Assembly: GCA_032622095.1 (NCBI GenBank)
Contig: CP136063.1
Span: 67,531,897 to 67,595,896, forward strand
DNA: 64,000 bases
Source of the DNA: Siphonodentalium dalli
Taxonomy: Eukaryota > Mollusca > Scaphopoda > Gadilida > Siphonodentaliidae
Reading direction: 5' to 3'
Shown: piece by piece, positions 984 through 63,822 of the stretch
Position numbering within the stretch: the stretch's first letter is position 1
Layout of the letters: every line of letters starts with the position of its first letter
Notes under the pieces: generated by a model
The model's input: only the letters and a program-made list of their open reading frames with translations
What the model was told of the DNA's origin: nothing
Database searches by the model: none
Program-made: the position numbers and the translations under genes

Positions 984-1125
984 CTAACAATGTTTACCTT
1001 GACCTTGTAAGCCAGTGCATTCTATTATATATGTGAGGCTCCCTATGGGAGACTCACATATATAAGAGAATGCACTGGCACAGGATCTTGAATGCTGCAC
1101 CAGCACAGCTCCCATCATGAAAGGG
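984..1125 (+). mobile_element. Family D (TTAA, piggyBac-like) MITE, right half
   Basis: Contains the D hairpin (stems around 1015-1078), the ACTGGCACAGGATCTT segment and the terminal CATCATGAAAGGG followed by TTAA at 1126-1129. The left end is missing. An apparent 73-aa minus-strand frame here is a shadow of the hairpin. Confidence 0.8.
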
Positions 1126-1484: not shown

Positions 1485-2400
1485 GATCGTATCTGTGTGA
1501 ATGAGATTCGAGGGCACATATCATGTCACTGAATGTTAATCCTGATGAGTTATACCGTAGTGGCCAGGACTGTCTGGGGGTGGGGATCCTATCTGTGTGA
1601 ATGAGATTCGAGGGCACATATCATGTCACTGAATGTTAATCCTGATGAGTTATACCATAGTGGCCAGGACTGTCTGGGGGTGGGGATCCTATCTGTGTGA
1701 ATGAGATTTGAGGGCACATATCATGTCACTGAATGTTAATCCTGATGAGTTATACCGTAGTGGCCAGGACTGTCTGGGGGTGGGGATCCTATCTGTGTGA
1801 ATGAGATTCGAGGGCACATATCATGTCACTGAATGTTAATCCTGATGAGTTATACCGTAGTGGCCAGGACTGTCTGGGGGTGGGGATCCTATCTGTGTGA
1901 ATGAGATTCGAGGGCACATATCATGTCACTGAATGTTAATCCTGATGAGTTATACCATAGTGGCCAGGACTGTCTGGGGGTGGGGATCCTATCTGTGTGA
2001 ATGAGATTCGAGGGCACATATCATGTCACTGAATGTTAATCCTGATGAGTTATACCGTAGTGGCCAGGACTGTCTGGGGGTGGGGATCCTATCTGTGTGA
2101 ATGAGATTCGAGGGCACATATCATGTCACTGAATGTTAATCCTGATGAGTTATACCGTAGTGGCCAGGACTGTCTGGGGGTGGGGATCCTATCTGTGTGA
2201 ATGAGATTCGAGGGCACATATCAAGTCACTGAATGTTAATCCTGATGAGTTATACCATAGTGGCCAGGACTGTCTGGGGGTGGGGATCTTATCTGTGTGA
2301 ATGAGATTCGAGGGCACATATCATGTCACTGAATGTTAATCCTGATGAGTTATACCGTAGTGGCCAGGACTGTCTGGGGGTGGGGATCTTATCTGTCTGA
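1485..2400. repeat. Tandem satellite, 100-bp unit, about nine copies
   Basis: Units start at GATC and repeat every 100 bp exactly. Copies are nearly identical. A CCGTAG/CCATAG variant near 1556, 1656, 1756 and so on follows the order G-A-G three times, which shows a 300-bp higher-order unit made of three monomers. The array ends at about 2400, where the unit diverges after ATCTGTCTGA. No open frame spans it. Confidence 0.95.
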
Positions 2401-2504
2401 CAAACATCCCACATATGTCAGAGAGTCATAATAAGTTCCCTCTGGGAGGGGGAAACCATAATTCTAACTGAGAGATATCATAGACACATATCAGCAGATG
2501 TTAA

Positions 2505-3152
2505 ACCTTCCATGACTGGAGCCTCCTGAAATTTAGGGAAAACCCTGTGCCAATGCATTCTCTTATATATGAGAGTCTCCCTTAGGGAGCCTTGCATATA
2601 TAAGAGAATACATTGACCTGACAATATTTACCTTGACCTCGTAAGACAATGCATTCTCTTATACATGTATATGTGAGTCGCCTTGCATATATAAGAGAAT
2701 GCATTGGCCTAACAATATTTATTTACCTTGACCATGTAAGCCAGTCCATTCTCTTATATATGCGAGGCTCCCTATGGGAGAAAGACTCACATATATAAGA
2801 GAATGCACTGGCTTACATGGTCAAGGTAAATAAATATTGTTAGGCCAATGCATTCTCTTATATGAGAGTCTCCCTTAGGGAGCCTTGCATATATATTAAA
2901 AGAGAATACATTGGCCTGACAATATTTACCTTGACCTTGTAATACAATGCATTCTCTTATACATGTATATGTGAGTCGCCTTGCATATTTAAGAGAATGC
3001 ATTGGTCTAACAATATTTATTTACCTTGACCATGTAAGCCAGTGCATTCTATTATATATGCGACGCTGTCTATGGGAGACTCGCATATATAAGAGAATGC
3101 ACTGGCACAGGATCTTTAATGCCGCACCCGGGCAACTCACATCACAAAAGGG
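2505..3152 (+). mobile_element. Family D MITE, expanded copy with six hairpin arms
   Basis: Starts at TTAA (2501-2504) with a CCTTCCATGACTGG end and finishes at a CAAAAGGG end before TTAA (3153-3156). At 648 bp it is over twice the usual size of about 255 bp. A direct duplication of about 295 bp (2549-2843 and 2844-3110) plus inverted segments give six TGCATTCTCTTATA-type arms. Frames at 2787-3156 are hairpin shadows. Confidence 0.88.
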
Positions 3153-3163
3153 TTAACAATTAA

Positions 3164-3547
3164 CCCAACAAACCGGCCAAAACCGGCCAAATAAAGCTTC
3201 AACAGCCTAAATATATCTTCGGTCTGTCTCAATAGAACCATACAAATATGGATATCATTGGAACCGGCTCCTTGACCACATTGTGATAGTTAGTTATGCC
3301 CTGTGCCAATGCATTCTCTTATATATGCGAGTCGACCATAGGTCGCCTCGCATATATAAGAGAATGCATTGGCCTAAAAAAAATCTTTTTTTAACACTTT
3401 TTACCATTTTTTCTTACATTTTTTAACAATTTTATTATTTTTAATGTGTTAAGCCAATGCATTCTCTTATATATGCGAGGCGACCTATGGTCGACTCGCA
3501 TATATAAGAGAATGCATTGGCACAGGGCCCTTCTGTTGGGTAAAGGG
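3164..3547 (-). mobile_element. Family C (TTAA, piggyBac-like) MITE
   Basis: Flanked by TTAA at 3160-3163 and 3548-3551. It has the two inverted hairpins (about 3307-3372 and 3453-3520) separated by an A/T-rich spacer, and the GGAACCGGCTCC and GGCCAAAACCGGCC segments typical of the family. The left end reads CCCAACAAACC, so the usual outer CCCTTTA is missing. The flanks on both sides read TTAACAATTAA. Confidence 0.9.
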
Positions 3548-3558
3548 TTAACAATTAA

Positions 3559-3955
3559 CCCTTTCTTTAATGGATCCTCCCATTCAGTTATAAAAGTATA
3601 TATTGGAATGGTCTATCATTCATTTGGAGGGATGTTCAGGTAATATAAGCAGACACAAGTCTTGAAATAGTGTGTCTGTCATTTGCAGAATGAGGTTCCC
3701 AGAGGGTGAATTTAGTGATGCTACCCTGCATAGCGGGCTAGCATCACCAAATTCACCCTCTGGAACCTCATTCTGCTGAGGTGTAAGCAGAATGAGGTCC
3801 CCAGAGGGTGAATTTGGTGATGCTAGCCCGCTATGCGGGGTAGCATCACTAAATTCACCCTCTGGGGACCTCATTCTGCAAATGACAGGCATACTATTTC
3901 ATAAGGCTTGAGTAGACGACAGATAATACAGGTGGAGAATGATTCCTATTGGTGT
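3559..3955 (+). mobile_element. Family E (TTAA) MITE interrupted by a family B MITE
   Basis: Starts CCCTTTCTTTAATGGATCC after TTAA at 3555-3558 and continues with the TTGGAATGGTCTATCATTCA and TTCAGG..AATATAAGCAGAC segments shared with other E copies. It resumes after the B insertion at GTAGACGACAGATAATACAG. The right end is not clear, so 3955 is approximate. Confidence 0.7.
3656..3910. mobile_element. Family B double-hairpin MITE (short form, 255 bp)
   Basis: Ends are CAAGTCTTGAAATAG and its inverse. Two long hairpins (3685-3775 and 3788-3880) share a GCAGAATGAGGTCCCCAGAG arm. It sits inside the E copy, with flanks AGCAGACA and AGTAGACG matching at six of eight bases. Confidence 0.92.
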
Positions 3956-4231: not shown

Positions 4232-4650
4232 CCGTAATGCCCTAAATAATCGACTCCTTAACCACAGCAGAATTATGGGTAATTTTTCAGGATTTAGTCG
4301 GAAATATGGCTTGTTGCCATTCATCGGAAAGCTCTCGGGGAGACTAAATCCTGAAAAATTACCCATAATTCTGCTGTGGTTAACCCTTTACCCAACAGAA
4401 GGGCCCTGTGCCAATGCATTCTCTTATATATGCGAGGCGACCTATGGTCGACTCGCATATATAAGAGAATGCATTGGCACAGGGCATAACTGTAACTATC
4501 ACAATGTGGTCAAGGAGCCGGTTCCAATGATATCCATATTTGTATGGTTCTATTGAGACAGACCGAAGATATTTTAGGCTGTTGAAGCTTTATTTGGCCG
4601 GTTTTGGCCGGTTTGTTGGGTTAAGGAGTCGATTATTTAGGGCATTACTG
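4232..4650. mobile_element. Family A foldback MITE split by a family C insertion
   Basis: Arms are CCGTAATGCCCTAAATAATC and its inverse, with TA at 4230-4231 and 4651-4652. The right arm is interrupted after CTGCTGTGG at a TTAA; removing the C element plus one TTAA restores the family A consensus (GTGGTTAAGGAGTCG). Confidence 0.93.
4384..4620 (+). mobile_element. Family C MITE nested in family A
   Basis: Flanked by TTAA at 4380-4383 and 4621-4624. The left end is CCCTTTACCCAACAGAAGGG; the right end stops at GTTTGTTGGG, lacking the usual TAAAGGG. Only one of the two internal hairpins remains (about 4413-4480). Confidence 0.93.
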
Positions 4651-5222: not shown

Positions 5223-5624
5223 CAAGCGTGCAAATAGCGTGCCTGTCATTTGCAGAATGAGGTCTCCAGAGGGTGAATTTAGTCATGCTATCCCGCACAG
5301 CGGGCTAGCATTGCCAAATTCACCCTCTGGAGACCTCATTCTGCTTAGGCCTCATCTTCTGGGAAGTATCTATTGTATCAAATTAACATTGGTTTTAGTT
5401 ACTTTTTCCCTTCTGGGAAGTTTCTATATCCCCTAATTTGCAGAAGATAAAATACATAATCGAGGTGCCCAATGGGTGAACATCACCAACTTCAACTGGG
5501 AACTTCATTCCGATCCTAGGTCTACCATAGCAGTTGATGGCCTAAGCAGAATGAGGTCCCAAGAGGGTGAATTTAGTGATGCTAGCTCGCTCTGCAAATG
5601 ACAGACACGGTATTTGCAGGCTTG
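5223..5624. mobile_element. Family B MITE, long form
   Basis: The 402-bp copy has ends of the GCAAATAG subtype (CAAGCGTGCAAATAGCG). Two hairpins flank an internal segment containing CTTCTGGGAAGTATCTAT and CTTCTGGGAAGTTTCTAT. Flanks AATGAAAT (5215-5222) and AATGAAGT (5625-5632) match at seven of eight bases, supporting an 8-bp target duplication. The right hairpin is truncated on one arm. Confidence 0.9.
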
Positions 5625-15032: not shown

Positions 15033-15287
15033 CAAACCTTGAAATAGTGTGTCTGTCATTTGCAGAATGAGGTCCCCAGAGGGTGAATTTAGTGATGCTA
15101 CCCCGCATAGCGGGCTAGCATCACCAAATTCACCCTCTGGGGACCTCATTCTGCTTACAACTCAGCAGAATAAGGTTCCCAGAGGGTGAATTTGGTGATG
15201 CTAACCCGCTATGCGGGGGTAGCATCACTAAATTCTCCCTCTGGGGACCTCATTCTGCAAATGACAGGCACAATATTTCAAGGCTTG
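15033..15287. mobile_element. Family B double-hairpin MITE, perfect 8-bp target duplication
   Basis: TATGTAAT precedes (15025-15032) and follows (15288-15295) the 255-bp element. Ends are CAAACCTTGAAATAG and the inverse of CAAGCCTTGAAATAT. Two hairpins with GCAGAATGAGG arms are separated by TTACAACTCA. Confidence 0.96.
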
Positions 15288-15533
15288 TATGTAATTTTTT
15301 AGGGATATCAAAACAAGTACCTGTGGGGAATATTTCTGATGGGAATTCTATGATAGAGCAATGAAAAACGTACTGTTGTACTTTTTATCAATTGGTGAGA
15401 AGGAAAAAATTCCAAATAAAATAATTATTAGATGATAGATGCATTTGCAGACAGGGGTCTTAGATTCGTATTTATTATTTCATACTCAGGAAACTATTTA
15501 GATCATGTTGCGGAAGAGATAATCCATCTTTAA

Positions 15534-15973
15534 CCCTTTCAGTGCCAGGTCCGATTTTTCTATCAACCCATATACCCTGTGCCAATGCATTCTCTTATAT
15601 ATGAGTATATAGGTCGCCTCGCATATATAAGAGAATGCATTGGCCTAACAATTTTTCATTATTTGTTATTAATTTTTACAATTTTTTACAATTTTAATAT
15701 TTTTTTTCTTATATTCTTTAACAGACTTATTTTGTAGGTTTAGTGCCAGGGAATCTTAGGTTTTTCATGGGAATCAAAATCATTACTATGAATACTTGGC
15801 GATAGTTTTGAGTTATAACATGCCCCTAAGGTTTTAACCAGTTTGTTTTTAAATTCGCTATAGCATGCTTAAGCATACCCAAAAAAAATTCAAATTCAAT
15901 TTTTATTTTTTTAGGGCCGATTTTACAGACCGTACATTAGGGCCGATGAGATCGGCCCCTGGCACTGAAAGGG
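15534..15973. mobile_element. Family C2 (TTAA) MITE, longest copy
   Basis: TTAA at 15530-15533 and 15974-15977; both ends carry CAGTGCCAGG in inverted form. It has one internal hairpin (about 15584-15643) and the extended spacer shared with the 8788 copy. Confidence 0.93.
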
Positions 15974-16094
15974 TTAAATAACTTAGTGTCTGTCAAATGG
16001 CATGTAGGTAAGCATTTCAGCTGTCCTATAACATTTTCGACAGGTTCAACCTATCAATGACCATGACAGGCCAGGTATTTATAGGCTTGCAGTG

Positions 16095-30010: not shown

Positions 30011-30680
30011 CCCTTATGACTGGAGCTTCCTGAAATTTTGCAAAAACTCTGTGCCAATTCATTCTCTTATATGTGACCCGCCATATCAAATCCAGTCGTA
30101 AGTAGGGATTTTTTTTACCCTGTGCCAATGCATTCTCTTATATATGCAAGTCGACCATAGGTCGCCTCGCATATATAAGAGAATGCATTAGCCTAACAAT
30201 TTTTTATCATGTTTTTTAAATAAATGTTTCTTACAATTTTTAGGACATAAAATAAAAAACATCCATTACCCTGCAGGGAGCCCCACACATATATAGAAGC
30301 ATATAGAAGAGTGTCGTCTGCTCATGTTTGTCTGGGGCTCTGTATGAGTGAAATTATAAAATTGTTAAAGAATACAAGAACAAATTATTAAAATTGTAAA
30401 AAATTGTTAGGCCAATGCATTCTCTTATATATGCGAGGCGACCTATGGTCGACTCGCATATATAAGAGAATGCATTAGCACAGGGTAAAAAAACCCGACT
30501 TCCGACTGGATTTGATATGGCGGGTCACATATATACATACGGAGCTTTGCATATATAACAGAATTATTGGCCTAACAATATTTACCTTGAATTTGTAAGC
30601 CACTGCATTAATTCTTATATATGTGAGGCTCCATATGGGATCTTTAATGCTGCACCAGGGCAGCTCCCATCATGGAAGGG
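30011..30680 (+). mobile_element. Family D MITE split by the C3 element
   Basis: Left TTAA at 30007-30010 with CCCTTATGACTGGAGCTTCC; right end CATCATGGAAGGG then TTAT. The D hairpin is opened after TTCTCTTATAT and resumes at ATATATACATACGGAGC. Confidence 0.85.
30073..30528. mobile_element. C3 element: C-type hairpins in a different terminal shell
   Basis: Ends GTGACCCGCCATATCAAATC and its inverse, with ATAT outside each end. Inside are two complete C-type hairpins (about 30126-30190 and 30411-30478) in inverted orientation, and a spacer holding GGGAGCCCCACACATATAT and GTCTGGGGCTC, absent from C and C2. The TTAA ends of C and C2 are not present. Confidence 0.85.
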
Positions 30681-39264: not shown

Positions 39265-39305
39265 GCAGAAAGAGGATCTACAACGAGTCCCCAGTCTAGC
39301 ATTAA

Positions 39306-39550
39306 CCCATTGAGTGCCAGGTCGATTTTTGTATCAACCCATATACCCTGTGCCAATGCATTCTCTTATATATGCGAGTCGACCATAGGTCGCCTCGCAT
39401 ATATAAGAGAATGCATTGGCCTAACAATTGTTGTTTTTTTTGTTTTTTTTTTACAATTTTTTACAATTTTAATAATTTATTCTTATATTCTTTAACAGAC
39501 TTATTTTGTAGGTTTAGGGCCGATGAGATCGGCCCCTGGTACTCAAAGGG
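39306..39550. mobile_element. Family C2 MITE, short form, reverse orientation
   Basis: TTAA at 39302-39305 and 39551-39554; starts CCCATTGAGTGCCAGG. One complete hairpin (39353-39420) and the GGGCCGATGAGATCGGCCC palindrome near the right end. Confidence 0.93.
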
Positions 39551-39554
39551 TTAA

Positions 39555-42904: not shown

Positions 42905-43414
42905 ATTGCAGCAGACAAGTGCATTCTCTTTATATATTCAAGGCTCCCTATGGGAGACTCGCATATTTAAGAGAGTACACTGGCACAATATCTTTAACCC
43001 ATTACCCAACAAACCGGCCAAAACCGGCCAAATAAAGCTTCAACAGCCTAAAATATCTTCGGTCTGTCTCAATAGAACCATACAAATATGGATATCATTG
43101 GAACCGGCTCCTTGACCACATTGTGATAGTTACAGTTATGCCCTGTGCCAATGCATTCTCTTATATATGCGAGCCGACCATAGGTCACCTCGCATATATA
43201 AGAGAATGCATTGGCCTAAAAACAATTCTTTTTACCATTTTTTCTTACATTCTTTAACAATTTTATAATTTTTAATGTGTTAAGCCAATGCATTCTCTTA
43301 TATATGCGAGGCGACCTATGGTCGACTCGCATATATAAGAGAATGCATTGGCACAGGGCCGTTCTGTTGGGTAAAGGGTTAATGCTGCACCAGCACTGCT
43401 CCGGTCATGAAAGG
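42905..43414 (+). mobile_element. Family D MITE, left-truncated, split by family C
   Basis: Keeps the right hairpin (42920-42983) and the CACTGGCACAATATCT segment. It is opened at TTAA and resumes as TTAATGCTGCACCAGCACTG, ending CGGTCATGAAAGGG before ATAA. Confidence 0.88.
42998..43378 (-). mobile_element. Family C MITE nested in D
   Basis: TTAA at 42994-42997 and 43379-43382. Starts CCCATTACCCAACAAACCGG, ends TTCTGTTGGGTAAAGGG. Both hairpins complete (43147-43214 and 43284-43352). Confidence 0.94.
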
Positions 43415-50813: not shown

Positions 50814-51067
50814 CAAGCCTTGAAATAGGGTGTCTGTCATTTGCAGAATGAGGTCCCTAGAAGGTGAATTTAGTGATGCTACCCCGCATAGCGGGCTAGC
50901 ATCACCAAATTCACCCTCTGGGGACCTCATTCTGCTCACACCTCAGCATAATGATGTTCCCAGAGGGTGAATTTGGTGATGCTAGCCCACTATGCGGGGT
51001 AGCATCACTAAATTCACCCTCTGGGGACCTCATTCTGCAAATGACAGACACCCTATTTCAAGGCTTG
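50814..51067. mobile_element. Family B double-hairpin MITE
   Basis: 254 bp with ends CAAGCCTTGAAATAGGG and its inverse, lying between the two copies of the duplicated segment. Flanks ACAATGAT and AGCATGGT agree at five of eight bases only. Confidence 0.92.
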
Positions 51068-53699: not shown

Positions 53700-55332
53700 T
53701 ATGTCAAGCTCAGGCAATATATCCGGTTAATATATCAATATATGTGGTTAGTTAGTCAATATATTTGGCTACTTATATTTGCAATTATATTTGGCTACTT
53801 TGTCAATATTGGAGGTTAGTTAGTCAATATATGCAGCTAATTTGTCAATATATGTGGTTAGTTAAGTCAATATATGCAGCTACTTTGCAAATATATGCAG
53901 CTACGTTTCCAATATATGTGGTTAGTTGGTCAATACTTTGTCCATTAATTTGGTTAGTTAGTCAATATATGTAGCAAATTAGTCAATATATTCGGTTAGT
54001 TAGTCATTATATGCAGTTTCTTTGTCAATGAATGTGGTAAGTTAGTCAATATATACATCTATTTTGCCAAAATGTGCAATTGCATTGACAATATATCCGG
54101 CTACTTTATCAATATATATATATATGATTAGTTAGTCATTGTTTGCAGCTGCTTAGTCAATATATGTGGTTAGGTAGTCATTATATGCAACTACTTAGTC
54201 AATATTTGTGGTCAGTTAGTCATTATAGGCATCCACATTGTCAATATATGCGGTTAGTTAGTCATTATATGCAGCTCCTTAGTCAATATATGTGGTCAGT
54301 TAGATATTATATGCAGCTACATAGTCAATATATGCGATCAGTTAATCATTATATGCAGCTACTTAGTCAATATATGCGGTTAGTTAGTCATTATATGCAA
54401 CTACTTAGTCAATATTTGTGGTCAGATAGTCATTATATGCATCTACTTAGTCAATATAGGCGGTTAGTTAGTCATTATATGCGGCTACTTAGTCAATATA
54501 TATGGTCAGTTAGTCATTATATGCAGCTAATTAGTAAATATATGCGTTCAGTTTGTAATTATATGCAGCTACTTAGTCAATATTTGTGGTCAGTTTGTCA
54601 TTATATTCATCTACTTAGTCAATATATGCGGTCAGTTAGTCATTATATGCAAATAATTAGTAAATATTTGGTCAGTTAGTCATTATATGCAGCTACTTGG
54701 TCAATATATGCGGTTAGTTAGTCATTATATGCAACTACTTAGTCAATATATGTGGTCAGTTAGTCATTATATGCAGCTAATTAGTCAATATATGCGGATA
54801 GTTAGTCACTATATGCAGCTACTTAGTCAATATAAGCAGTTAGTTAGTCATTATATGTAGATACTTAGTCAACATGTGTGGTTAGTTAGTCATTATATGC
54901 AGTTACTCAGTCAATATAAGCAGTTAGTTAGTCATTATATGCAGTTACTTAGTCAATATAAGCAGTTAGTTAGTCATTATATGCAGCTACTTAGTCAATA
55001 TAAGCAGTTAATTAGTCATTATATGTAGATACTTAGTCAACATGTGTGGTTAGTTAGCCATTATATGCAGTTACTCAGTCAATATAAGCAGTTAGTTAGT
55101 CATTATATGCAGTTACTTAGTCAATATAAGCAGTTAGTTAGTCATTATATGCAGTTTCTTTGTCAATATATGTGTTAGTTAGTCATTATATGCAACTACT
55201 TAGTCAATATATGTGATCAGTTAGTCATTATATTTTGCTACTTAGTCAATATATGCGGTTAGATAGTCATTATATGCAGCTACTCTGTCAATATATGTGG
55301 TCAGTTTGTCATTATATGCAGCTACTTAGACA
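53700..55332 (+). repeat. Satellite array, 42-bp unit, left inverted half
   Basis: Unit is GTCAATATATGCGGTTAGTT then AGTCATTATATGCAGCTACTTA, itself two related 21-bp halves; about 38 units. Because 42 is a multiple of three, a 178-codon frame (54143-54679) stays open and encodes a monotonous SQYMRSVSHYMQLL repeat; I regard it as a satellite artefact. Confidence 0.93.
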
Positions 55333-56111
55333 AAGTAGATGCATATATTGACTAACTAACCGCATTTATTGACTAAGTATCTACACATAATGACTAACTA
55401 ACCACACATATTGACTAAGAAGCTGCATATAATGACCAACGAACCATATATATTGATAAATTAGCTGCATATATTGTCAATGCAATTGCACATTTTGACA
55501 AAGTAGATGTATATATTGAATAACTGACCACATTTATTGACAAAGAAACTGCATATAATGACTAACTAGCCACATATATTGACTAATTATCTACACATAA
55601 TGACTAACTAACCACATTTATTGACTAAGTAGCTGCATATAATGACTAACTAACTGCATATATTGACTAAGTAGCTGCATATAATGACTAACTAACTGCA
55701 TATATTGACTAAGTAGCTGCATATAATGACTAACTGACTCATATATTGACTAAGTAACTGCATATAATGACTAACTGACACATATATTGACTAAGTAACT
55801 GCATACAATGACTAACTAACCACATATATTGACAAACTAACCGCATATCTTTACTAATTTGCTACATATATTGACTAACTAACCAAATTAATGGCCAAAG
55901 TATTGACCAACTAACCACATATATTGGAAACATAGCTGCATATATTTGCAAAGTAGCTGCATATATTGACTTAACTAACCACATATATTGACAAATTATC
56001 TGCATATATTGACTAACTAACCTCCAATATTGACAAAGTAGCCAAATATAATTGCAAAGAGGCTGCATCTATTGACTAACTAACCACATATATTGATATA
56101 TTAACCGGATA
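55333..56111 (-). repeat. Satellite array, 42-bp unit, right inverted half
   Basis: Same unit in reverse orientation, about 18 units, so half the length of the left array. The switch lies at CTACTTAGACAAAGTAG. Confidence 0.93.
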
Positions 56112-62345: not shown

Positions 62346-62726
62346 CCCTTTACCCAACAAACCGGCCAAATAAAGCTTCAACAGCCTAAAATATCTTCGG
62401 TCTGTCTCAATAGAACCATACAAATATGGATATCATTGGAACCGGCTCCTTGACCACATTGTGATAGTTACAGTTATGCCCTGTGCCAATGCATTCTCTT
62501 ATATATGCGAGTCGACCATAGGTCGCCTCGCATATATAAGAGAATGCATTGGCCTAAAAAAATAATTTTTTAACGCTTTTTAACATTTTTTCTTACATTC
62601 TTTAACAATTTTATAATTTTTAATGTGTTAAGCCAATGCATTCTCTTATATATGCGAGGCGACCTATGGTCGACTCGCATATATAAGAGAACGCATTGGC
62701 ACAGGGCCCTTCTGTTGGGTAAAGGG
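62346..62726 (-). mobile_element. Family C MITE
   Basis: Left TTAA at 62342-62345; the right target has decayed to CTAG. Starts CCCTTTACCCAACAAACCGG, ends TTCTGTTGGGTAAAGGG. Both hairpins complete, one mispaired base (AACGCATTGG). Confidence 0.94.
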
Positions 62727-63568: not shown

Positions 63569-63822
63569 CAAGCCTTGAAATAGGGTGTCTGTCATTTGCA
63601 GAATGAGGTCCCCAGAGGGTGAATTTAGTGATGCTATCCCGCATAGCAGGCTAGCATCACCAAATTCACTCTCTGGGAACCCCATTCTGCTGAGGTGTAA
63701 GCAGAATGAGGTCCCCAGATGATGAATTTGGTGATGCTAGCCCGCTATGCGGGATAGCATCACTAAATTCACCCTCTGGGGACCCCATTCTGCAAATGAC
63801 AGACACCCCATTTCAAGGCTTG
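63569..63822. mobile_element. Family B double-hairpin MITE, perfect 8-bp target duplication
   Basis: GATACAGT on both sides (63561-63568 and 63823-63830). Ends CAAGCCTTGAAATAGGG and the inverse of CAAGCCTTGAAATGGGG. Hairpins separated by TGAGGTGTAA, as in the 3656 copy. Confidence 0.96.

What the first reader, a model, noticed from the sequence alone, without database searches (positions are those of the whole stretch)
3307..3520. Shared hairpin with covarying stems, a conserved mispair and a three-base loop
In C, C2 and C3 the hairpin is CCAATGCATTC...GAATGCATTGG outside and CGACC-TAT-GGTCG inside, separated by a G-A mispair (or its complement in the second, inverted hairpin). In family D the same frame has CCAGTGCATTC...GAATGCACTGG and CTCCC-TAT-GGGAG with the same mispair position and loop. 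Paired changes on both arms with a retained mispair suggest constraint on folded structure, or arm-to-arm correction that spares the loop side. Dozens of copies occur in the window. The shape, near 67 nt, also resembles a small-RNA precursor.
Basis: partly seen in the sequence, partly recalled or inferred. Interest (0 to 1): 0.8.

Follow-up and report, generated by a model that had tools for sequence, protein, structure and literature searches.

The report
Hairpin shared by tiny mobile elements
A 67-letter hairpin that occurs well over a hundred thousand times in this animal genome is a shared building block of several families of tiny jumping DNA elements, and its matched stem changes trace mainly to about three old lineage changes rather than to ongoing upkeep of the fold.

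Summary
The hairpins are real: 67 nt, 31 pairs, one mispair (T·C, or G·A on the other strand), loop ATA/TAT. They lie inside non-coding miniature transposons. The finding (C) is a two-hairpin, TTAA-flanked element of family F3 at 3160-3551; D is family F1. The same module (CCCTGTG-hairpin-CCTAACA) occurs in at least four families with unrelated ends: three TTAA-flanked (F1-F3) and one with 4-bp A/T duplications (F4). One exact 21-nt core alone gives 126,837 hits.

The covariation is real but almost confined to three pairs. Stem types D and C are joined by a third paired type, E (338 exact copies; about 4 expected by chance), so inner-stem pairs changed one at a time. Within sampled copies, changes are one-sided: 393 one-sided against 9 complementary. 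Frequent ongoing correction is therefore not supported. A role for the fold in the source elements is not excluded.

A second hairpin family (93 nt, different arms) has the same core: T·C or C·C mispair at pair 6 (17 of 17 copies), GC-rich five-pair stem, ATA or ACA loop.

I read this as a new variant of a known kind: MITEs that share a swapped hairpin module. The driving enzyme, function and small RNAs are untested.

The parts
3160..3551 (-). F3 miniature element (two hairpins) that contains the finding; TTAA at both ends (one end is a slightly shortened variant)
   Evidence: read; same layout in F3 loci
3306..3372 (+). C-type hairpin, outer side left: CCCTGTG before it, CCTAA after it; mispair T-C, loop ATA
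3454..3520 (-). C-type hairpin, inverted partner; on + strand reads G-A mispair, loop TAT
2501..3156 (+). F1 ('family D') element expanded to an array of hairpins (arms starting at 2550, 2646, 2741, 2845, 2944, 3039)
4380..4624 (+). F3 element with a single hairpin at 4411-4477, CCCTGTG on both sides
15530..15977 (+). F2 element (long form), one hairpin at 15582-15643; TTAA ends
39302..39554 (+). F2 element (short form), one hairpin at 39353-39419; TTAA ends
30073..30528 (+). F4 element (ends GTGACCC...GGGTCAC, two C-type hairpins at 30125-30191 and 30412-30478), inserted into the left hairpin of an F1 element
43148..43351 (.). two C-type hairpins of an F3 element
62486..62699 (.). two C-type hairpins of an F3 element
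1012..1078 (-). D-type (F1 right-hand) hairpin, CCAGTGC...GCACTGG

Best explanation
The hairpin is a subterminal module of several families of non-autonomous DNA transposons (MITEs). Whole elements, with their hairpins, are multiplied by transposases acting in trans. The C/D stem variants are subfamily differences inherited from a few source elements: F1 carries D (and a rarer E form), F2-F4 carry C (one C-type hairpin of 109 had an F1 flank), and the unrooted path is D-E-C. After insertion each copy decays by ordinary, mostly one-sided mutation. Shown: the elements' ends, target duplications, the module's presence in families with unrelated ends, the paired intermediate, and the one-sided decay. 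Inferred: a piggyBac-type transposase moves F1-F3. The module passed between families by copying or recombination, for example template switching while repairing an excision gap. The three paired changes arose in source elements, most economically by one-step copying of a small patch from one arm to the other.
For: F3: 19 of 20 fetched loci have both TTAA-type ends (some with a changed base; two pairs of loci share flanks and are likely duplicates), total length 233-401; 20 of 20 hold at least one hairpin. F4: 16 of 16 short loci hold at least one hairpin, and 13 of 16 have identical 4-bp A/T flanks next to GTGACCC...GGGTCAC, ten of them ATAT (which alone would not separate 4 bp from TA) and one each AAAT, AATT, ATTT. 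F1: 15 of 20 loci hold a hairpin. Of 109 C-type hairpins in the sample, 105 fall in named flank classes; the other 4 are array members or truncations. Ends differ but the module is alike: F2 45-125 against F3 25-105 is 98.8% identical, F3 25-105 against F4 45-125 is 97.5%, one representative each. Genome counts of the 21-nt core: all 16 combinations 138,977; C/C 126,837; D/D 10,120; E/E 338; the other possible intermediate 5; one-sided D/E forms 415, which predict about 4 doubles. Of 20 fetched E copies, 15 carry the F1 left flank, 1 the F1 right flank, 4 other flanks, two of those four alike. Within-copy test. The genome gives 128 matches to the piggyBac transposase domain (116 of 649 candidates scored), many open, and one locus has TTAACCCTTAA at both ends.
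Against: No transposase gene with the F1-F3 ends was found. In 22 piggyBac loci read, seven have a single weak match (up to three changes in about 15 letters) to one of these ends and none has a matching pair; two (L097, L099) have one weak hairpin-arm match. The reads cover about 1.3-1.5 kb on each side of the domain, so true ends may lie beyond. The route by which the module moved is not shown; no empty site was found. Between types 3 changes are paired and, counting the common C-A variant, 1 unpaired, against 9 complementary and 393 one-sided within copies (Fisher p 8e-5; the 14 double but non-complementary cells are left out). That is more pairing than plain drift predicts, but the test was set up after seeing the data. 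On the alignment, cells paired (93.8 against 90.7%) and covariation score (0.099 against 0.056) exceed all 500 shuffles, as lineage-linked paired changes would also do. A second hairpin family shares the core design, which descent of this module alone does not explain.
Confidence: 0.72

Rival explanations
1. Selection on the folded form in source elements: a protein or nuclease recognises the hairpin with its mispair and 3-nt loop, so source elements that keep the fold spread best.
For: Three paired changes between types. Both inner-stem pairs changed through a paired intermediate type. A second, 93-nt hairpin family with different arms has at pair 6 a T-C (11 of 17) or C-C (6 of 17) mispair, then a five-pair stem, and an ANA loop (ATA 8, ACA 8, AAA 1) in the same polarity. 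Odds raised slightly (0.25 to 0.28) after the recount.
Against: Dead copies say nothing either way. An unpaired C-A variant is common in F1's left hairpin (9 of 21), yet those copies exist in numbers. F2 has a single hairpin, and F4 copies with a cut hairpin occur (L031 and its likely duplicate L042).
Confidence: 0.28
2. Frequent arm-to-arm correction by template switching in the genome (quasi-palindrome correction), homogenising arms in all copies.
For: The mechanism is described for stems: it can make multibase compensatory changes in one event (PMC8794818, abstract and opening text seen). The two inner-stem changes are double transversions, which have no wobble intermediate.
Against: 393 one-sided against 9 complementary changes within sampled copies. 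0 of 135 hairpins with readable core and flanks have the core inverted relative to the flanks. The two C-type double changes come from one tandem array.
Confidence: 0.1
3. The palindromes are internal binding sites for the transposase, like the palindromes bound by the C-terminal domains of piggyBac and piggyBat.
For: F1-F3 have TTAA duplications and CCCTT-type ends. piggyBac and piggyBat ends hold palindromes bound by the transposase C-terminal domains (PMC11707139, passages seen).
Against: F4 carries the same hairpin with different ends and a different target duplication. The 67-nt palindrome is far longer than the 19-bp palindromes given for piggyBac in those passages.
Confidence: 0.15
4. 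The transcribed hairpin is a small-RNA (miRNA or siRNA) precursor.
For: 31-pair stem, strong fold, size close to a precursor.
Against: No Rfam match in the window. Any young palindromic MITE would look like this. No expression data.
Confidence: 0.08

Closest known systems
piggyBac-type MITEs (TTAA target)
   Same: TTAA duplication, short CCCTT-type terminal repeats, about 250-450 bp, non-coding, very many copies, piggyBac transposase domains in the same genome
   Different: Carry one or two (or an array of) 67-nt hairpins shared with families that have unrelated ends; no matching autonomous element found in 22 loci read
REPINs of bacteria (paired inverted REP hairpins)
   Same: Two inverted hairpin units with a short spacer, high copy number, compensatory changes (passages of PMC3116915 seen)
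   Different: Large eukaryote-size genome; elements have terminal inverted repeats and target duplications; no Y1/HUH enzyme was looked for; covariation lies almost only in three pairs
Template-switch compensated RNA stems
   Same: Paired changes in both arms that can arise in one event (PMC8794818, abstract and opening text)
   Different: Seen here between subfamilies, hardly within copies
Pack-TIR elements of animals
   Same: F4-ended loci L027 and L028 hold a Bcl-2-like open frame between F4 ends, as Pack-TIRs hold captured sequence (PMC8277862, abstract)
   Different: Origin step, host source gene and expression not examined

Membership tests
MITE, TTAA (piggyBac-like) type, for F1-F3 | TTAA target duplication at both ends | tested here: met
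   19 of 20 F3 loci with both ends found by a fuzzy search, a few with a changed base in or next to the TTAA; F2 and F1 copies
MITE, TTAA (piggyBac-like) type, for F1-F3 | terminal inverted repeats | tested here: met
   F3 CCCTTTACCCAACA...TGTTGGGTAAAGGG; F2 CCCTTTGAGTGCCAG...CTGGCACTCAAAGGG; F1 ends are shorter and less alike
MITE, TTAA (piggyBac-like) type, for F1-F3 | matching transposase source in the genome | tested here: inconclusive
   128 piggyBac-domain matches; 0 of 22 loci read show a pair of F1-F3 ends, seven have one weak single match
MITE, TTAA (piggyBac-like) type, for F4 | TTAA target duplication | tested here: not met
   F4 ends GTGACCC...GGGTCAC; 13 of 16 loci have equal 4-bp flanks, ATAT (10), AAAT, AATT, ATTT
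REPIN | inverted pair of hairpins as one unit | tested here: met
   F1, F3, F4; F2 has one hairpin only
REPIN | bacterial host | tested here: not met
   2.23 Gb genome in 9 contigs
REPIN | associated RAYT (Y1) transposase | not tested
   no search for a Y1/HUH enzyme was made
structured RNA family / miRNA precursor | match to a curated family, small RNAs from the arms | tested here: inconclusive
   no Rfam match at gathering threshold in the window; small RNAs not testable here
conserved structure shown by covariation | independent paired changes at several pairs beyond shared descent | tested here: inconclusive
   49 of 53 both-side cells fall in three pairs; pairs with a double change 7, reached by 100 of 500 shuffles; cells paired and covariation score reached by 0 of 500

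The most novel reading that the evidence does not exclude
The hairpin core (T-C type mispair, five GC-rich pairs, ANA loop) is a recognised structure, found in two hairpin families with different long arms. It marks a paired-hairpin unit, working like a bacterial REPIN, that spreads between unrelated DDE transposon families without a target duplication, perhaps through a single-strand (HUH-like) enzyme that cuts at the CCCTGTG foot.
Probability: 0.07. Interest if true: 0.85.

Novelty: new variant of a known kind. Interest (0 to 1): 0.5.

Why it matters
It offers a natural experiment with more than 100,000 copies on how near-perfect palindromes evolve inside mobile DNA: stems change pair by pair between source lineages, yet copies decay freely. 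It also shows one module shared by mobile element families with unrelated ends, which bears on how new MITE families arise. The shared core of two hairpin families is a concrete lead for a structure-recognising factor.

Tried and rejected
Free-standing module: TTAACCCTGTGCCAATGCATTC occurs 328 times. I read 16 distinct places (7; 12, three of which repeat places with more flank). Judged by eye, 10 of 16 are F4 (7), F3 (2, one rearranged) or F1 (1) copies in which the letters before CCC read TTAA; three (L131/L135, L133/L136, L134/L137) have a left side not recognised, two of them with an F4 right side; L130 has unusual flanks; L142 and L143 share a further outer context. No clean free element was found.

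Autonomous F4: spans between F4 ends in L027-L030 (1.9-6.8 kb pieces) showed no frame that I recognised as a transposase, but only the two Bcl-2-like frames were put to Pfam.

F1 loci without a counted hairpin (5 of 20): cut, replaced or interrupted by another insertion after the left end, not a clean empty site.

Papers: three exact stem words were not found in the held library (0 papers). Searches for palindromic TTAA MITEs, mollusc or bivalve hairpin MITEs, scaphopod genomes and template switching gave listings; apart from the four papers opened I saw only titles and starts of abstracts, and none of these named this element. That is no proof that it is unpublished.

Rows dropped: hairpins with alignment score below 50 were not counted and cells with gaps were set aside. 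One search used 64 of the 68 distinct gap-free hairpins that were not chosen by their core. Two of the four left out (L042, L081) share flanks with other fetched places; the other two (L059:253-319, L064:222-288) were 'other', though some other such rows were kept. The 18 E-type and 5 CTACC-type rows were left out because they had been selected by core. Counts include three places read twice and a few likely duplicates. The consensus printed mixed the two orientations and so listed only the pair-16 mispair; one search repeats it with orientation set by the loop. A notebook entry that gave the unpaired F1 variant as 13 of 21 was wrong; one search counts 9 of 21.

Full report
WHAT IS THERE. The two hairpins of the finding lie at 3306-3372 and 3454-3520. 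Each is 67 nt: 26 outer pairs, one mispair, five inner pairs and a 3-nt loop. They fold far better than shuffles as RNA (0 of 200 shuffles) and, for the two hairpins tested, as DNA. A fuzzy search finds 44 left arms in the window, 38 of them paired with a right arm, one of these a nested artefact. In the whole genome (2.23 Gb, 9 contigs) one exact 26-nt arm occurs 274,098 times on the two strands.

WHERE THEY SIT. In most copies the hairpin has CCCTGTG (or ATCCTGTG and the like) on its outer side and CCTAACA, CTTAACA or CTTACAA on its inner side. Reading outward, the sequence beyond CCCTGTG falls into different families. F2: TTAACCCTTTGAGTGCCAG...CTGGCACTCAAAGGGTTAA, one hairpin. F4: GTGACCCGCC...GGCGGGTCAC, two hairpins, about 456 bp; 13 of 16 loci have equal 4-bp A/T flanks, ten of them ATAT. 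A further outer context appears in L142 and L143. The finding is the F3 copy 3160-3551. In the sample of 167 hairpins (window plus L007-L086), 109 are C type and 58 D type; 142 fall in the named flank classes and 25 in 'other', which are arrays, truncations or diverged flanks. I saw no clean free-standing hairpin.

ONE MODULE, SEVERAL UNRELATED ENDS. The hairpin with its CCCTGTG is 97.5-98.8% identical between single representatives (F2 with F3, F3 with F4) although their ends are unrelated; an AT-rich inner stretch is shared too at lower identity. So the module has moved between families, or been copied. It is present in 20 of 20 F3, 16 of 16 F4 and 15 of 20 F1 loci chosen by their outer sequence, so it is a regular part of these elements. 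How it moved is not shown. Template switching during repair is an inference; a study of animal Pack-TIRs reports gap filling and fork switching as sources of captured sequence (PMC8277862, abstract).

THE COVARIATION TEST. In an alignment of 64 distinct hairpins (of 68 eligible), 53 cells are changed on both sides. Of these, 49 lie in three pairs (4/64, 29/39, 30/38, counted from 1); four other pairs have one each. The number of pairs with any double change (7) is reached by 100 of 500 shuffles and the number of further pair types by 392 of 500; cells paired (93.8%), double-changed cells and covariation score are reached by none. Related sequences can do that without structure. Between types: C has CGACC/GGTCG, D has CTCCC/GGGAG, and F1's right-hand hairpin also has G-C in place of A-T at pair 4. 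Genome counts of the 21-nt core: all 16 combinations of the two inner pairs 138,977, C/C 126,837, D/D 10,120, intermediate CTACC/GGTAG 5, intermediate CGCCC/GGGCG 338, one-sided forms between D and E together 415 (10,873 less D/D and E/E). The 415 predict about 4 chance doubles, so 338 is a lineage. Of 20 fetched E copies, 15 carry the F1 left flank, 1 the F1 right flank and 4 other flanks, L103 and L120 being alike. The inner stem therefore changed pair by pair, through a paired form.

DECAY WITHIN COPIES. Measured against each type's consensus, C-type copies have 46 left-only and 69 right-only changes and 2 double ones in 3,308 pair cells (1.0 expected; both from one tandem array). D types have 105 and 173 one-sided and 21 double in 1,668 cells (14.7 expected), of which 7 are complementary; sliding the partner gives 7-14 doubles, 2-5 complementary. 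So there is no clear sign that copies are being corrected; a small excess in D types is not excluded. Template switching across the whole hairpin would also turn the core round: 135 hairpins with readable core and flanks are in the normal orientation and 0 are flipped; 21 have an unreadable core, 7 an unclear inner flank, and three single-hairpin copies flanked by CCCTGTG on both sides cannot be oriented. Between types the score is 3 paired changes; the commonest unpaired one, C·A at columns 7/61, is in 9 of 21 F1 left hairpins (C·G 6, T·G 2, C·C 2, C·T 1, gap 1). Taking it as 3 to 1 against 9 complementary to 393 one-sided within copies gives p = 8e-5, but four events and a test made after the fact are thin. 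Minor shared variants in F1 (three or more copies each) are mostly one-sided, several at CpG.

THE MISPAIR AND LOOP. The C, D and E consensus cores keep T·C (outer to inner) and ATA. Within a young family that is descent. But a second hairpin family, 93 nt, starting GCAGAATGAGG, has at the same sixth pair T·C in 11 and C·C in 6 of 17 full-length copies held, a five-pair GC-rich stem inside it, and loop ATA (8), ACA (8) or AAA (1) in the same polarity, plus A·C at pair 16 in 15 of 17 (22 copies of all lengths). In the window plus 20 random 5-kb pieces, hairpins with a 3-nt loop and a single mispair have it at pair 6 in 34 of 39 cases, 33 of the 34 from these two families; these are copies, so only two independent families. 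The two share ATGC near the core, so distant kinship is possible. I cannot tell descent from shared recognition.

HOW IT PROBABLY WORKS. F1-F3 are moved in trans by a piggyBac-type enzyme: the TTAA duplications, CCCTT-type ends, 128 domain matches with many open frames and one locus with TTAACCCTTAA at both ends fit, but no source element with these exact ends was found among 22 loci read. F4 probably needs another enzyme. The hairpins travel as passengers or as an internal aid; no test here separates these. Paired changes arose in source elements, perhaps in one step each by copying a patch from one arm to the other, as proposed for RNA stems (PMC8794818, abstract and opening text).

WHAT IT IS NOT SHOWN TO BE. 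It matched no curated RNA family in the window. It is not a REPIN, although the two-hairpin layout and high copy number work alike (passages of PMC3116915). Binding by the transposase is open; piggyBac and piggyBat ends do hold palindromes bound by the enzyme (passages of PMC11707139).

VERDICT. An older role of the fold, and a shared core between two hairpin families, remain open.

Noticed in passing
window 3685-3879, 5252-5344, 15062-15258, 50843-51038, 63598-63793 and others: A second, 93-nt hairpin family (GCAGAATGAGGTCCCCAGAGG..., 38 arm matches in the window), several times as doublets about 103 bp apart, with the same core design as the 67-nt hairpin: mispair at pair 6, ATA or ACA loop, plus an A-C mispair at pair 16 in 15 of 17 copies.
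   Followed up: partly
L027 634-1077, L028 602-1138: Loci with F4 ends carry an open frame with a Bcl-2 domain (PF00452, E 9.6e-11 and 1.8e-13): a captured or carried host-like gene between MITE ends.
   Followed up: partly
window 30073-30528, L032, possibly L041: F4 elements sit inside the arms of other copies' hairpins (CATATATA-like targets): two clear cases and one likely.
   Followed up: no
window 53760-56096: Large inverted array of 42-bp / 21-bp repeats (TCAATATATGCAG...), both orientations meeting near 55,330; arms 53778-54054 and 55782-56058 are 93% complementary.
   Followed up: no
window 1485-2400: Satellite-like array, 100-bp unit, 9.2 copies, 98% matches.
   Followed up: no
window 4258-4383: Another TTAA-flanked near-palindrome (arms TTAACCACAGCAGAATTATGGG..., 42 nt, 100% complementary), lying between two F3 copies.
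   Followed up: no
L050: Stretch reading AGCTCACCTGAGACGAAGTCTCCGGTGGAGCT resembles, from memory only, a repeat common in molluscs; with 9 chromosome-size contigs the host may be a mollusc. Unverified.
   Followed up: no
G000:C1 about 826000-916000: Hairpin matches recur about every 11.2 kb, pointing to a tandem array of an 11-kb unit near the contig start.
   Followed up: no
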